DNA of 64,000 nt from positions 225,540 through 289,539 of the forward strand of contig NZ_LAHA01000002.1 of the NCBI RefSeq assembly GCF_002608075.1, written 5' to 3'. This DNA is from Nostoc linckia z4. GTDB lineage: Bacteria; Cyanobacteriota; Cyanobacteriia; Cyanobacteriales; Nostocaceae. Shown here piece by piece: positions 58,544-63,994 of the stretch (its first letter is position 1; every line of letters starts with the position of its first letter). Under the pieces are notes generated by a model. That model had not been told where the DNA came from. It ran no database searches and saw nothing but the letters and a program-made list of their open reading frames with translations. A program made the position numbers and the translations under genes.

Positions 58544-59974
58544 ATGTATACAATCAGCGAACAGTCAACCAAAAAAGCTTGGGCAGGTGCGATCGCCGAA
58601 CCAGCCAAAGAATTTCCTCTTACCCAACTGCCAATTATCTCTGGTAAAATACCGGATGGCTTACGTGGCAAACTTTACCGCAATGGCCCCGCACGACTAG
58701 AACGTGGCGGTAGGCGGATGGGGCACTGGTTTGATGGAGATGGAGCAATTCTGTCTGTAAATTTTACTGATGCAGGAGCCACCGCAGTTTATCGCTACGT
58801 GCAAACAACTGGCTACAAACAAGAAGCCGCAGCAGATAAACTGCTTTACGGTAACTATGGTATGACTGCGCCAGGAGCTTTTTGGAATCAATTGCTCAAA
58901 CCAGTGAAAAATGCTGCTAATACTTCTGTCATCGCACTTCCAGATAAACTCTTAGCACTGTGGGAAGCTGGTAGACCCCATGCCTTGGATTTGCAAACTT
59001 TAGAAACTTGGGGCGAAGATGATTTAGGAGAGTTAAATAAAGGATTACCCTATTCCGCACACTACAAACGCGACGACCAAACAGGTGAGATTTTTAACTT
59101 TGGTATCATTCCCGGATTAAATGCCAAACTAAATATTTATAAGAGCGATGCCACTGGCAAAATTATCCAACAGACAACATACCCTCTGGATGGCATACCA
59201 ATAGTGCATGATTTTGTTTTAGCAGGACAATATCTTGTATTTTGCATACCGCCAGTGCGGCTGAATTTCTTTCCTGTATTGCTAGGAAGCAGCTTTGGTG
59301 ATGCCCTAGAGTGGAAACCTCAGTTGGGAACTCAAATTTTAGTCTTCGATCGCCAGACATTATCTCTAGTAAGTCGTAGTGAAACCAAGCCTTGGTTTCA
59401 GTGGCATTTTGTCAACGGTCATTTAGATGCTAGTGGTTCAGCAATTATAGATATTGCCTGCTACGAAGACTTTCAAACAAACCAATATCTTAAAGAAGTA
59501 CCCACAGGTAAAACTCATACCTCTGCTCAAAGTACACTAACACGAGTACATCTTCAACCCCAAACTGGCAAAGTTACATCTATTGAGCAAATACTAGACC
59601 AACATTGCGAGTTCCCAAAAGTACCAGACCAAAATGTAGGGCAAGCCTCTCGGTATACATATTTTTCCTCATTTTCCAAAGGAACAGATATTAGCCAAGA
59701 AATAGTAAACGCCATTGCCCGTTTTGATTTCCACACCCAAACCCTTGTGGAAACAAACCTCAAACCAAATCTTTATCCTTCAGAACCACAACCTGCTCAA
59801 GATGCCCAAAACCCTCAGCAAAGTTGGGTAATAACTGTGGTCTACGATGGTAATTCTCATAGTAGTGAAGTTTGGGTATTTGATAGCGATCGCCTAGACG
59901 CAGAACCTGTTTGCAAACTGGGATTACCAAGCGTTATTCCTCATGGTTTCCACGGCACTTGGAATTCTGCATAA
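58544..59974 (+). CDS. Carotenoid cleavage oxygenase (CCD/RPE65 family), cluster gene 1
   Basis: 476 residues, ATG at 58544. Seven-bladed propeller type with all four iron-binding His: 173 (YSAHYK), 222 (IVHDF), 288 (FQWHF) and 470 (GFHGTW). N-terminal GKLYRNGPA and FDGDGAIL are family hallmarks. No signal peptide. It cleaves C=C bonds in carotenoids or apocarotenoids with O2. About 60% identical by eye to the next gene, so a tandem duplication. Confidence 0.93.
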   Translation: MYTISEQSTKKAWAGAIAEPAKEFPLTQLPIISGKIPDGLRGKLYRNGPARLERGGRRMGHWFDGDGAILSVNFTDAGATAVYRYVQTTGYKQEAAADKLLYGNYGMTAPGAFWNQLLKPVKNAANTSVIALPDKLLALWEAGRPHALDLQTLETWGEDDLGELNKGLPYSAHYKRDDQTGEIFNFGIIPGLNAKLNIYKSDATGKIIQQTTYPLDGIPIVHDFVLAGQYLVFCIPPVRLNFFPVLLGSSFGDALEWKPQLGTQILVFDRQTLSLVSRSETKPWFQWHFVNGHLDASGSAIIDIACYEDFQTNQYLKEVPTGKTHTSAQSTLTRVHLQPQTGKVTSIEQILDQHCEFPKVPDQNVGQASRYTYFSSFSKGTDISQEIVNAIARFDFHTQTLVETNLKPNLYPSEPQPAQDAQNPQQSWVITVVYDGNSHSSEVWVFDSDRLDAEPVCKLGLPSVIPHGFHGTWNSA

Positions 59975-60005
59975 AACAGAATTGAGAATTGGTGAATACT
60001 CTATT

Positions 60006-60066
60006 TCAGATGCGACGCTCGTTCGCGCAGCCTGCCGTAGGCAAGACTCGCTACCGCTGTGCTATC
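60006..60066. repeat. Dispersed GC-rich repeat in the oxygenase cluster
   Basis: GCGACGCTCGTTCGCGCAGCC and CGCTACCGCTGTGCTA; the inverse of the type at 26939-27002. Non-coding. Confidence 0.6.
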
Positions 60067-60150
60067 AACCACTCGTACAGAATTCATGACTTTATTATGA
60101 CTCAGGATTTGCTGAATTCTCCTTATAAAGAAAATTTCTATTGATTTGAG

Positions 60151-61587
60151 ATGACTACAATCGATCGACAATCAACCAAAAAAGCTTGGGCAAAGGCGAT
60201 CGCTAAACCTGCAACGGAATTTCCTCTTACCAAATTACCAGTTCTCTCTGGTAAAATCCCCGATGGTTTGCGCGGTACACTTTACCGTAATGGCCCAGCA
60301 CGCTTTGAACGTAGTGGTATACGTGTGGGACACGTGTTTGATGGTGATGGCGCAATTTTGGCTGTTCATTTTACCGATGCTGGAGCCACTGGAGTCTATC
60401 GCTATGTGCAAACAGCAGAATACCAAGCGGAAACACAAGCCGATCGCTTCCTCTATGACGTTTATGGAACGCACAAACCAGGCCCGATTTGGCAGCGTTG
60501 GTTCCAGCCGATCAAAAATGCAGCTAATACCTCAGTTTTGGCTTTACCTGATAAATTATTAGCTTTGTGGGAAGCAACTCATCCCTATGCCCTGGATTTA
60601 CAAACTCTCGACACCATAGGCTTAGATAATTTAGGAGCCTTACCCAAACAATTACCTTATTCTGCTCATTACAAACGCGATGCACACACAGGCGAGATTT
60701 TTAACTTTGGTGTCAGTATCGGCACTTCTGTACAACTGAACCTTTACAAAAGCGATAACACTGGCAACATTATCCAAAGAAATACTTTCAATTTAGGTCG
60801 CTACTCTATCATCCATGATTTTGTACTGACGCAAAAATATCTTGTGTTTTTCATGCCACCAATGAGCATGAAATTACTACCATTAATTCTCGGTCTGACC
60901 ACCTTTAGTGATTCTCTGTTGTGGAAGCCACATTTAGGAACCCAAGTTTTGATTTTTGACCGCGAAAACCTATCCCTAGTTAGTCGTGGTGAAACCGATC
61001 CTTGGTTTTCTTGGCACGTTGGCAATGGATATGAGGATGAAGAAGGCACAATAATTCTAGATTTGGTGAGATATTCAGACTTTGAACAAACTAATGAATT
61101 CTTGAGAGAATTTGCCACTGGTGAAACACACACACTTTCTCTGAGTACGCTGTGGCAAATACGTCTCAATCCCCTAACTGGTAAAATTATCAGCGCCCAA
61201 GAAGTTGTCAACCGTAGGTGTGAGTTTCCAGTAGTACAGCGATCGCAAGTTGGACAACCTTGGCGTTACACTTATGCATCTTTAATCGGAAAAAATGCCG
61301 ATGCTAGCAAAGAATGGTTCGGCACGATCGCACGTTTTGATTACCAAACTGAAACTCTCACCGAAGCAGACTTAGGAGAAAATCGCTATGTCACAGAACC
61401 CATCCACGCCCAAGATAGCCAAAATCCTGAACAAGGTTGGGTGTTAACAGTAGTCTACGATGGTAATTCTCATAGTAGCGAAGTTTGGGTATTTGATAGC
61501 GATCGCCTAGATGGAGAACCTGTTTGCCAACTGGCATTACCGAGCGTCATTCCTCATGGTTTCCACGGCACTTGGAATCCTGCGTAA
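60151..61587 (+). CDS. Carotenoid cleavage oxygenase (CCD/RPE65 family), cluster gene 2
   Basis: 478 residues, ATG at 60151. The four iron His are at 173, 222, 289 and 472 in the same contexts as in gene 1. The N-terminal 50 residues are nearly colinear with gene 1 (QSTKKAWAKAIAKPATEFPL). The most divergent parts are 100-125 and 235-260, which line the substrate tunnel in known structures, so substrate choice may differ. It lies 176 bp after gene 1. Confidence 0.93.
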   Translation: MTTIDRQSTKKAWAKAIAKPATEFPLTKLPVLSGKIPDGLRGTLYRNGPARFERSGIRVGHVFDGDGAILAVHFTDAGATGVYRYVQTAEYQAETQADRFLYDVYGTHKPGPIWQRWFQPIKNAANTSVLALPDKLLALWEATHPYALDLQTLDTIGLDNLGALPKQLPYSAHYKRDAHTGEIFNFGVSIGTSVQLNLYKSDNTGNIIQRNTFNLGRYSIIHDFVLTQKYLVFFMPPMSMKLLPLILGLTTFSDSLLWKPHLGTQVLIFDRENLSLVSRGETDPWFSWHVGNGYEDEEGTIILDLVRYSDFEQTNEFLREFATGETHTLSLSTLWQIRLNPLTGKIISAQEVVNRRCEFPVVQRSQVGQPWRYTYASLIGKNADASKEWFGTIARFDYQTETLTEADLGENRYVTEPIHAQDSQNPEQGWVLTVVYDGNSHSSEVWVFDSDRLDGEPVCQLALPSVIPHGFHGTWNPA

Positions 61588-61702: not shown

Positions 61703-63994
61703 ATGAATAATCTCAAGCTTTTTCAGGTTAGTGGACGAATTTACGAAGCCGAAAGTAATTGTGGTATTCCTAACTTAATTATCGAAGCCTTTGACAAAGA
61801 TGTTGTTAAGAACGATAAATTAGGGCAAGCAAAAACTAATAGCGATGGAGCTTTTGAAATTGCATACTCCGAAGCAGATTTTAAAGGCAAATTTGAGATA
61901 TTTGAAAGCAGTCCCGATTTATATATTGTAGTCAAAACACCTGATAAGAGTAAAATCTTGTACAGCAGCGAAAAGACTATTCGTAATAATGCAAAAAATC
62001 ATGAGCATTTTAATGTAGCGATTCCCCAAGCTATCTTACTTGCAAGTAGAGAAAAAGCTGCAAAAGATGATAAGCAATTATTAAAGCTCCTCGTTGGTAT
62101 TGCCTGGATCGATGGAGAACTCGAACCAGGAGAACAAGAATTCTTGCAACGAATGGCAAAGGAGAAAGGACTGGCTGACGATCCAGAGATTAAATCCTTG
62201 TTATTGTCCGATCGGCCAGTACCGCTAGAAGAATGTTATGGCTGGTTACAAACCTATTTAAATAGTGAAAACAAAGATTTTCAGGAGTTGTATGAAGCTA
62301 TAAACTCACTGATGCATAGCGATGGTGAGTTGGATAGTGAGGAAAAGGAACTTTTAAAAGAGCTGACAGCCACAGACATAGGGAACAACTCCAGCCGCCA
62401 ACTGACTCTACAGCGTCGATTCATGAGCATGATGCTTGATAGCAAATTCCTGGCGGGCGTAGTTCAGATGGAGCGATCGTCAATGGTTAATCAAACAGCT
62501 TTAGGGACTGGCTATTATGCTCGCGTTCCCTACCAAGCGATCAGTCGCTTCAGCTTCACTGCGAATATCAAAACTCTCGCGGATGATATGGCGAAGCTTT
62601 ATTTAACTGACAACTTCGCTCCAGTCAAAAAAGAAATCACTGCTGATAATCTCATAGTAGAAGGCGAACTTCCCAAAGAATTAAAAGGGATGTTTCTCCG
62701 CAACGGCCCCAATCCCCAATTTAAGCCTACAGGACTTCATCACTGGTTAGATGGAGATGGAATGCTCCACTGTGTAGAGATGAGCAATGGCAAAGCTAGC
62801 TACCGCAACCGTTACATCCGCACAGATGGGTTTAAAGTCGAGCAAACTCAAGCCAAAGCAATTTGGCCTGGACTGCTAAACTTGCCAAGGTTTGACGCAC
62901 CCCACGGCTTGATGATGAAGAATACCGCCAATACTTCATGTGTATTCCATGCTGGTAAATTATTGGCTTTGTGGGAAGCTGGCGCACCCTATGAAATCCG
63001 GCTTCCAGATTTAGAAACTGTTGGCGTATATACCTTTAACGACAAACTCGCTTCCACCTTTACAGCACATCCCAAAATTGACCCAGTGACGGGTGAAATG
63101 ATTGTGTTCGGCTTCGCACCCATCGCTCCACCTTATCTTGAATATAGTGTCATTTCCAAAGAAGGGGAATTAAAGCGCACCGTTCCCATTGATATACCAG
63201 CCCCGGTGATGATGCATGATTTTGCCATTACTGAACACTACACCATCTTCCTAGATATGCCGCTCACCTTCAAACCGATGCGAATCATGCAAGGTCAGCT
63301 ACCTATTAAATTTGAGGCTCAAAACCCCAGCCGTATCGGTATCCTACCCCGCCACGGGGATAATCGAACAATCCGTTGGTTTAAGGTTTCTGCCTGTATG
63401 CTCTACCATGTGGGCAATGCTTGGGAAGAAGGTGACGAGGTGGTACTCTTGGCTACCCGAACACCCGATACCTATCTGTTTATTCCTCAAGAAGACAAAG
63501 GTGAAGGTGGGGAAACTGAGTTTGAACAATTCCGCCTGTATCGCTATCGAATCAACCTAGTGACGGGTGTTGTGAAAGAAGAACCTTTAGATGATGTTGC
63601 TACAGAATTTCCCCGCATCAACGATGATTTCACGGGGCGGAAAACACGTTATATGTATGCTTCACGGCAAGCAACATATATGAGACCCAGACTATTATTG
63701 GATGGTCTGATTAAGTATGACTTGGAAACTGGTAGCTCCCAAGTGCATGAATTTGGACGTGGGCGCTTTGGTGGTGATAGTGCGTTTGCACCTCGCCCCG
63801 GTGCTAGTACTGAAGACAATGGTTGGTTGCTGACGATGGTCTGGGACGCGGTAGCCAAGCAGTCTGAATTACTGGTTATTGATGCCCAAAACTTTACATC
63901 CGAACCTGTGGCGCGGGTAATTATGCCTGGGCGCGTTCCTTACGGATTTCATGCTACATGGATTTCTCAAGCACTTGTAGCAACTCCTAGCTAG
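61703..63994 (+). CDS. TTR-like/TerB-like/carotenoid oxygenase fusion, cluster gene 3
   Basis: 763 residues, ATG at 61703. Residues 1-105 form a transthyretin/Cna-B-like beta domain (FQVSGRIYEAESNCGIPNLI, FEIAYSEADFKG). Residues about 124-223 look like a TerB-type helical domain with two acidic loops, AWIDGELEPGEQEFL and MHSDGELDSEEKELL. After a linker, residues about 300-763 are a complete oxygenase with His456, His505, His569 and His750. Normal family members are about 450-500 residues, so the 300-residue N-terminus is extra. It is more distant from genes 1 and 2 than they are from each other and lies 115 bp after gene 2. Confidence 0.9.
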   Translation: MNNLKLFQVSGRIYEAESNCGIPNLIIEAFDKDVVKNDKLGQAKTNSDGAFEIAYSEADFKGKFEIFESSPDLYIVVKTPDKSKILYSSEKTIRNNAKNHEHFNVAIPQAILLASREKAAKDDKQLLKLLVGIAWIDGELEPGEQEFLQRMAKEKGLADDPEIKSLLLSDRPVPLEECYGWLQTYLNSENKDFQELYEAINSLMHSDGELDSEEKELLKELTATDIGNNSSRQLTLQRRFMSMMLDSKFLAGVVQMERSSMVNQTALGTGYYARVPYQAISRFSFTANIKTLADDMAKLYLTDNFAPVKKEITADNLIVEGELPKELKGMFLRNGPNPQFKPTGLHHWLDGDGMLHCVEMSNGKASYRNRYIRTDGFKVEQTQAKAIWPGLLNLPRFDAPHGLMMKNTANTSCVFHAGKLLALWEAGAPYEIRLPDLETVGVYTFNDKLASTFTAHPKIDPVTGEMIVFGFAPIAPPYLEYSVISKEGELKRTVPIDIPAPVMMHDFAITEHYTIFLDMPLTFKPMRIMQGQLPIKFEAQNPSRIGILPRHGDNRTIRWFKVSACMLYHVGNAWEEGDEVVLLATRTPDTYLFIPQEDKGEGGETEFEQFRLYRYRINLVTGVVKEEPLDDVATEFPRINDDFTGRKTRYMYASRQATYMRPRLLLDGLIKYDLETGSSQVHEFGRGRFGGDSAFAPRPGASTEDNGWLLTMVWDAVAKQSELLVIDAQNFTSEPVARVIMPGRVPYGFHATWISQALVATPS

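What the first reader, a model, noticed from the sequence alone, without database searches (positions are those of the whole stretch)
61703..63994. Carotenoid oxygenase fused to a transthyretin-like and a TerB-like domain
The oxygenase part is complete (four His), but it is preceded by about 300 residues with a beta-sandwich and a helical domain bearing two D-G-E-L-E/D-x-x-E loops, the TerB pattern. TerB-like domains are linked to metal or membrane stress responses. Fusing one to an iron-dependent oxygenase suggests regulation by metal ions, membrane binding or assembly with other stress proteins. I do not know of a described system of this kind.
Basis: partly seen in the sequence, partly recalled or inferred. 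Interest (0 to 1): 0.7.

Follow-up and report, generated by a model that had tools for sequence, protein, structure and literature searches.

The report
Carotenoid-cutting enzyme with added front module
Some Nostoc-like cyanobacteria carry a carotenoid-cutting iron enzyme with two extra domains in front, one of them shared with a cyanobacterial fatty-acid-oxidising enzyme, which suggests a common add-on that positions or regulates enzymes working on oily substrates; what the front domains do is untested.

Summary
ORF 61703-63994 (+, 763 aa) joins a transthyretin-like beta-sandwich (1-108), a TerB-like helical domain (about 115-225), a poorly modelled linker (226-300) and a complete carotenoid oxygenase (305-755; H456, H505, H569, H750). 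It is no artefact: 22 intact fused loci were found in 21 of 217 genomes of the family, and each front segment is under purifying selection in six comparisons. Their oxygenase parts group together (bootstrap 90), beside ordinary ~470-aa enzymes of 54-60% identity, taken here to be NosCCD-type. The sandwich matches the N-terminal beta-domain of Cyanothece-type lipoxygenases (hhalign E 3.7e-12), and that lipoxygenase is its best fold match in the PDB. The TerB part matches a small TerB protein widespread in the family. Loop 1 is invariant in 22 of 22 fused proteins; loop 2 has drifted but stays mostly acidic, so metal control is possible and untested. A crtW ketolase adjoins the fused gene in 5 of 25 loci (three gene contexts), so ketocarotenoids are plausible substrates. 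Front module and oxygenase core of the window gene have different closest relatives, so they have recombined. Best reading: a NosCCD-type 9,10-cleavage paralogue with a front module for placement or assembly. New variant of a known kind.

The parts
61703..63994 (+). Complete fused ORF, 763 aa: TTR-like, TerB-like, linker, carotenoid oxygenase
   Evidence: 22 intact fused loci, the window included,
61703..62026 (+). Residues 1-108, transthyretin-like beta-sandwich shared with the N-terminal domain of cyanobacterial lipoxygenases
   Evidence: model; Foldseek best hit 5ek8 E 8.2e-6; hhalign E 3.7e-12 to lipoxygenase N-termini, control E 0.23
62045..62377 (+). Residues 115-225, TerB-like helical domain
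   Evidence: Pfam TerB 27.0 bits over cut-off in the N-term alone; hhalign to unfused cyanobacterial TerB proteins E 1.1e-40
62111..62134 (+). TerB acidic loop 1, D137-G-E-L-E-P-G-E144; D137, G138, E141, E144 in 22 of 22 intact fused proteins
62321..62344 (+). TerB acidic loop 2, D207-G-E-L-D-S-E-E214; E214 in 22 of 22, acid at 207 in 20, G208 in 12 of 22
62378..62602 (+). Residues 226-300, linker predicted as helices at low confidence; a recombination breakpoint lies near its end
   Evidence: pLDDT mostly under 50; identity profile
62615..63967 (+). Residues 305-755, carotenoid cleavage oxygenase (RPE65 family)
   Evidence: Pfam; PDB by sequence; Foldseek best hits Osmanthus CCD1
63068..63070 (+). 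Iron ligand His456 (role from family knowledge)
   Evidence: conservation
63215..63217 (+). Iron ligand His505 (role from family knowledge)
   Evidence: conservation
63407..63409 (+). Iron ligand His569 (role from family knowledge)
   Evidence: conservation
63950..63952 (+). Iron ligand His750 (role from family knowledge)
   Evidence: conservation
58544..59974 (+). Unfused carotenoid oxygenase, 476 aa, first of three tandem genes
60151..61587 (+). Unfused carotenoid oxygenase, 478 aa, second of three tandem genes; ends 115 bases before the fused gene

Best explanation
It is a paralogue of the NosCCD (NSC1) type of cyanobacterial carotenoid 9,10 / 9',10' cleavage dioxygenase that gained an N-terminal TTR-TerB module within this family of cyanobacteria, most simply once with later losses. 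Shown by sequence: the fusion, the intact iron site, the grouping of the fused oxygenases, and homology of the beta-sandwich with the N-terminal beta-domain of Cyanothece-type 9R-lipoxygenases. Inferred: the oxygenase cuts bicyclic, probably keto-bearing, carotenoids as NosCCD does; the module does for this otherwise soluble enzyme what N-terminal beta-plus-helical parts do for lipoxygenases, that is, hold it on or next to a membrane or partner and keep it catalytically competent; the TerB helices may add an ion-dependent contact.
For: Fused oxygenases fall in one group of 27 rows (bootstrap 90, SH-aLRT 100), 24 of them fused or part-fused, beside the ~470-aa enzymes. The nearest solved enzymes by sequence and by fold are plant carotenoid 9,10-dioxygenases. 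The review PMC5133782 (passages) states that NosCCD is soluble and lists echinenone and 4-ketomyxol-2'-fucoside among its substrates. A beta-carotene ketolase crtW over the NCBIfam cut-off adjoins the fused gene in 5 of 25 loci, in three gene contexts and both orientations, against 0 of 65 unfused genes in genomes with a listed crtW; 5 of 21 against 0 of 65 gives p 5.8e-4, and 3 of 19 with near-copies merged p 0.010, a test made after the pattern was seen. Beta-sandwich and lipoxygenase N-terminus: negative control; three of the four lipoxygenases also hit Pfam TTR-52 at E 0.003 or better, under its cut-off. The review PMC10889196 (passages) says of the Cyanothece enzyme that the beta-strand domain matters for catalysis and an N-terminal helix for liposome binding. 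In six pairs dN/dS is 0.12-0.36 over the three front segments and 0.06-0.16 over the oxygenase.
Against: No activity, location or metal data exist here. In the Cyanothece enzyme the beta-domain was reported as not important for membrane binding, and the TTR-like domain also begins ORFs not recognised as oxygenases, so membrane placement does not follow from it. The TTR-52 match is under Pfam's cut-off, and the 5ek8 fold match has low TM-scores (0.26 and 0.12), the shared domain being a part of both chains. The relative placement of module and oxygenase is not modelled (pLDDT under 50 over most of 216-288). 20 of 25 loci lack crtW within the stretch examined, the window among them. One relative lacks the TTR part yet keeps TerB plus oxygenase, and several copies are broken or truncated, so the gene is dispensable. 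The labels fused and unfused need four changes on the tree, not one. That the ~470-aa enzymes are NosCCD orthologues is inferred; the NosCCD sequence itself was not compared.
Confidence: 0.42

Rival explanations
1. Metal-responsive switch: the TerB domain binds divalent ions through its acidic loops and turns the iron oxygenase on or off during metal or membrane stress.
For: Both loops are intact in the window protein. Loop 1 is kept in 22 of 22 intact fused proteins and holds an acid (E141) where 31 of 32 unfused TerB proteins have Gln; loop 2 keeps an acid at 207 in 20, 211 in 20 and 214 in 22 of 22. A heavy-metal P-type ATPase (Zn/Cd family for the one scanned, from G001) lies directly upstream of the fused gene in G001, G013 and G014, and one of the same gene cluster lies downstream with three genes between in G204.
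Against: Loop 2 has drifted (D207 in 13, G208 in 12 of 22) while unfused TerB proteins keep S206, D207 and E214 in 32 of 32. The three adjacent ATPase loci are near-copies, so they count as about one event; 21 of 25 loci have no gene of this cluster in the stretch examined. Metal sensing by TerB itself is recalled, not tested.
Confidence: 0.25
2. Assembly scaffold: the module makes the oxygenase oligomerise or dock to the neighbouring oxygenases or to CrtW, channelling a carotenoid; it has no role in membranes or metals.
For: Three oxygenase genes in tandem in the window and one unfused oxygenase gene before the chromosomal fused gene of G214; crtW beside it in five loci; front module and core have been exchanged between fused lineages.
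Against: Neighbours differ between lineages; no complex was predicted.
Confidence: 0.23
3. Passive add-on: the N-terminal part is a tolerated accident of fusion without function.
For: dN/dS of the front segments exceeds that of the oxygenase in 17 of 18 segment comparisons; one lineage lost the TTR part; broken or truncated copies exist.
Against: dN/dS 0.12-0.36 in every front segment of all six comparisons and 54 invariant residues over 17 N-termini with identities to the window down to 42%.
Confidence: 0.1

Closest known systems
NosCCD / NSC1 type carotenoid cleavage dioxygenase (unfused ~470-aa enzymes of the same family of cyanobacteria, taken as this type)
   Same: Neighbouring group in the tree, 54-60% identity over the oxygenase for the listed full-length ones, same four His
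   Different: No N-terminal module; separate group; none of 65 unfused genes examined lies within 5 kb of a listed crtW
Cyanothece sp. PCC 8801 9R-lipoxygenase (PDB 5ek8; taken to be CspLOX1)
   Same: Homologous N-terminal beta-sandwich in front of a non-haem iron oxygenase
   Different: Unrelated catalytic domain; no TerB match in the four related lipoxygenases scanned; a helical extension at its N-terminus (review passage)
Small cyanobacterial TerB-family proteins, 133-161 aa in 31 of 32 aligned
   Same: 35-44% identity over the TerB part, D137, G138 and E144 of loop 1; hhalign E 1.1e-40
   Different: Stand alone in the frames examined; Gln in place of E141; stricter loop 2
Transthyretin-like TTR-52 family
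   Same: Fold match 3uaf E 1.7e-3, rank 5; Pfam hits in 12 of 17 members at E 0.01 or better
   Different: Under Pfam's cut-off in the window protein; the best fold match is the lipoxygenase
Long RPE65 protein of Chlorogloeopsis fritschii, WP_016873878.1 (PMC7029182, section 12 read)
   Same: Described as a much longer RPE65 protein with homology to a protein in Nostocales; possibly a relative of this architecture
   Different: Said to hold only two of the four His; its sequence could not be compared here

Membership tests
Carotenoid cleavage oxygenase (RPE65, PF03055) | Profile match over cut-off across the whole propeller | tested here: met
   502.7 bits against 27, positions 1-469 of 469
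Carotenoid cleavage oxygenase (RPE65, PF03055) | Four iron-ligand His | tested here: met
   H456, H505, H569, H750 in 24 of 24 fused rows
Carotenoid cleavage oxygenase (RPE65, PF03055) | Three second-shell Glu (positions recalled) | tested here: inconclusive
   E425 and E635 present; the third place is D692 in the window, D in 14 and E in 10 of 24 fused rows
Carotenoid cleavage oxygenase (RPE65, PF03055) | Oxidative cleavage of a carotenoid | not testable with these tools
   needs an enzyme assay
NosCCD / NSC1 orthologue group | Falls inside the group of unfused ~470-aa enzymes | tested here: not met
   Separate group of 27 rows, 90/100: a paralogue; NosCCD itself not in the tree
8'-apo-carotenoid 13,14-cleaving dioxygenase (NF052295) | Score over the equivalog cut-off | tested here: not met
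   356.2 bits against 675
TerB (PF05099) | Profile match | tested here: met
   27.0 bits against 24.4 in residues 1-302, but 23.7 in the full protein; hhalign E 1.1e-40
TerB (PF05099) | Two acidic loops (recalled as metal sites) | tested here: inconclusive
   Both in the window; loop 2 drifted in part of the fused family
Transthyretin-like (PF01060) | Profile match over cut-off | tested here: not met
   18.6 and 20.4 bits against 24.9
Transthyretin-like (PF01060) | Seven-strand sandwich fold | tested here: met
   Model and Foldseek
Beta-domain of cyanobacterial lipoxygenase | Profile homology to the domain | tested here: met
   hhalign probability 97.6, E 3.7e-12, 66 columns

The most novel reading that the evidence does not exclude
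Cyanobacteria use one interchangeable front cassette, a TTR-like sandwich with optional helical parts, as their counterpart of the eukaryotic PLAT/C2 domain, fitting it to unrelated iron oxygenases of polyene lipids (lipoxygenase and carotenoid oxygenase); in the carotenoid enzyme a TerB domain makes the cassette ion-responsive and directs turnover of ketocarotenoids made by a neighbouring CrtW.
Probability: 0.2. Interest if true: 0.65.

Novelty: new variant of a known kind. Interest (0 to 1): 0.45.

Why it matters
[quoted passage not shown] A defined N-terminal module, present in some paralogues and absent in others, gives a direct way to ask how a soluble oxygenase reaches membrane-bound carotenoids and whether ion or stress signals control their breakdown. 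Sharing a beta-domain with a lipoxygenase suggests that cyanobacteria may have solved substrate access for two oxygenase families with one part.

Tried and rejected
Annotation artefact or frameshift fusion: rejected, 22 intact fused ORFs and purifying selection in the linker too. Designed TIM-barrel hits (7osu, 7a8s, 8r8n) rank above 5ek8 in one or both PDB sequence searches, and 25 of the 32 rows are ABL-type kinases; none of these has a single stretch that passes alone, and the rows shown of the fold search do not hold them, so I took them as chance or composition. 13,14-cleaving and lignostilbene equivalogs: far under cut-off. A conserved operon: not found; neighbours change between lineages. 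Metal-ATPase linkage: mostly one close group of genomes.

Literature: searches in the held open library listed no paper that I recognised as describing this domain order. These are listings and not all bear on it; the one paper holding the three terms (on CylK, PMC8916777) was not opened. Passages were seen of PMC3299332, PMC5437038, PMC5133782, PMC10889196, PMC6612559 and PMC7029182 (of the last also section 12). The primary Cyanothece lipoxygenase paper is not held; its findings are cited from a review.

Full report
What is there. The ORF at 61703-63994 (+) encodes 763 aa without internal stops. It lies on contig C40 of a 9.0-Mb genome. Pfam gives RPE65 over 305-755 far over cut-off, TerB just under cut-off in the full protein and TTR-52 under cut-off; with residues 1-302 alone TerB passes (27.0 against 24.4 bits) and TTR-52 does not (20.4 against 24.9). 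AlphaFold2 on 17 sequences models a seven-strand sandwich (6-107) and helices from 109, with 205-302 poor. On the full protein with 64 sequences the oxygenase is mostly good, and most of 216-288 stays under 50, so the relation of module and oxygenase is unknown. The full model's best PDB matches are Osmanthus CCD1 and then other enzymes of the family; by sequence too the best are entries named carotenoid 9,10-dioxygenase.

The fusion is real and belongs to one family in the genomes seen. In 53 genomes of the genus the full N-terminus was found fused in G000, G001, G010, G013, G014, G017, G023 and G031, without the TTR part in G041, and frameshifted in G003; most others show only a small TerB protein, and three show no match. 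In 217 genomes of the family (up to 10 candidates scored in each, so counts are lower bounds), 22 intact fused loci in 21 genomes were collected. In 386 genomes drawn over the phylum (up to 6 candidates scored in each), the four full-length matches all lie in this family; the other matches listed are TerB-like or TTR-like stretches. A scan of one genome per species gave six loci, all cyanobacterial, at the reach of a single-sequence query. Public annotation calls one such gene, on a Nostoc plasmid, a carotenoid oxygenase family protein. Broken or reduced copies occur: G003 frameshifted and G041 without TTR, G215 with an in-frame stop, G055 as two fragments, G155 truncated and G180 at a contig edge.

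Oxygenase part. A tree of 46 sequences places the fused oxygenases in one group of 27 rows (bootstrap 90, SH-aLRT 100) beside unfused ~470-aa enzymes. The three unfused rows inside it are the G180 contig-edge copy, the truncated G155 copy, and one long-branch enzyme (L130) without a detectable module in the flank held. The label fused needs four changes on this tree, at least three of them forced by well-supported branches; one gain with later losses or truncations is my reading. In a search with the window's oxygenase part, 118 of 118 family genomes examined had a match, and unfused full-length enzymes at 54-60% identity were listed for most of them. I take these as NosCCD type by size and distribution; the NosCCD sequence was not compared. 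According to a review, NosCCD is soluble, cuts at 9,10 and 9',10' and accepts echinenone and 4-ketomyxol fucoside (PMC5133782, passages).

Front module. The sandwich is homologous to the N-terminal beta-domain of cyanobacterial lipoxygenases: profile hit to 5ek8 (E 0.0066), best fold hit 5ek8 (E 8.2e-6, 118 columns, low TM-scores as each chain holds more than this domain), and hhalign E 3.7e-12 against the N-termini of four such proteins, which Pfam places over cut-off in the lipoxygenase family; an unrelated profile gave E 0.23. The same TTR profile also matched several other cyanobacterial ORFs, of which the two scanned hit no Pfam family, so the domain is a general module, not a lipid-oxygenase signature. 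The TerB part matches small cyanobacterial TerB proteins (hhalign E 1.1e-40); all 33 sequences of that alignment, the window's among them, hit Pfam TerB at E 0.01 or better. Loop 1 is kept in 22 of 22 intact fused proteins and holds E141 where 31 of 32 unfused proteins have Gln. Loop 2 has D207 in 13 and an acid there in 20, G208 in 12, an acid at 211 in 20 and E214 in 22 of 22; unfused proteins have S206, D207 and E214 in 32 of 32. In six pairs (of 21 possible with the window) dN/dS is 0.12-0.36 in the front segments and 0.06-0.16 in the oxygenase; dS exceeds 1 in several.

Neighbours. In 25 loci examined (one of them the G055 fragments), crtW (over the NCBIfam equivalog cut-off in all five) adjoins the fused gene in five: convergent in G200, G211 and G164, same direction in G204 and G208. 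G164 shares no other neighbour cluster with G200 and G211 apart from crtW and the oxygenase. Of unfused oxygenases in genomes with a listed crtW, 0 of 65 lie within 5 kb. The 65 include L130 and the G155 copy and leave out fragments and the distant 500-aa type. That call's fused denominator (13) was incomplete; the fuller count, with G001, G003, G013, G014, G017, G041, G142 and G173 added from the loci, is 5 of 21 (p 5.8e-4), or 3 of 19 after merging near-copies (p 0.010), unfused rows not merged. The test was made after the pattern was seen. Fused loci in genomes without a listed crtW, such as G023 and G031, were left out, and the crtW list is cut off at the end of its output. In the window no crtW is near (the genome's over-cut-off crtW is on C83); instead two unfused oxygenase genes stand directly upstream.

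Mosaic origin. Against L052 the window gene is 82-90% identical in DNA over residues 1-300, 56-78% over 281-660, and 89-91% over 681-763; against L038 it is 81-87% over 1-340, 89-96% over 321-700 and 79% over 721-763 (sliding windows of 60 residues). Trees agree: by residues 1-225 the window joins L052 and L051 with L038 (grouping window and L038 instead with the lineage that their oxygenase joins is rejected, p-AU 1.3e-7); by oxygenase it joins L038 and that lineage (grouping with L051 and L052 is rejected, p-AU 0.009). The groups were named after seeing the identity profile. So module and core have been recombined near the linker.

Mechanism. Shown: fusion, iron site, homologies, selection, recombination. 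Inferred: NosCCD-like 9,10 cleavage; keto-carotenoid substrates; a placing or assembling role of the module. For the Cyanothece lipoxygenase a review reports that the beta-domain matters for catalysis and a helix for liposome binding (PMC10889196, passages). This argues that the sandwich alone need not bind membranes, and that the helical TerB and linker part is the better candidate. Metal control is possible through the acidic loops but is not needed to explain the data.

Verdict. A real, patchily spread domain architecture, not seen described in the searches named under Tried and rejected; a new variant of a known enzyme family rather than a new kind of system.

Noticed in passing
window 61703-63994: The gene is a mosaic: front module and C-terminal end closest to L052, oxygenase core closest to L038, with breakpoints near residues 280 and 680.
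   Followed up: yes
window 58544-61587: Two further carotenoid oxygenase genes in tandem directly upstream, 476 and 478 aa, distant from the fused one; G214 has one such gene before its chromosomal fused copy.
   Followed up: partly
L010:5941-7974 (same gene as L017): A relative keeps TerB plus oxygenase but lacks the TTR part, as if that domain had been removed.
   Followed up: partly
L095-L098: Lipoxygenases of 664-669 aa with the same TTR-like N-terminal domain.
   Followed up: yes
L099, L100, L101, L102, L103, L106: Other cyanobacterial ORFs bear the same TTR-like domain near their start; L099 and L100 look alike; L101 and L102 hit no Pfam family.
   Followed up: partly
L105:1571-7900: A 2109-aa ORF with the TTR-like domain near its start that looks Tc-toxin-like (recalled likeness); described only.
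   Followed up: no
L149:5877-6623 and its counterpart in L150: A fatty acid hydroxylase-family gene follows the fused gene in G017 and G023, where the other members of that subclade (G164, G200, G211) have crtW.
   Followed up: partly
L130: Long-branch unfused oxygenase inside the fused group: either a loss of the module or a line from before the fusion.
   Followed up: partly
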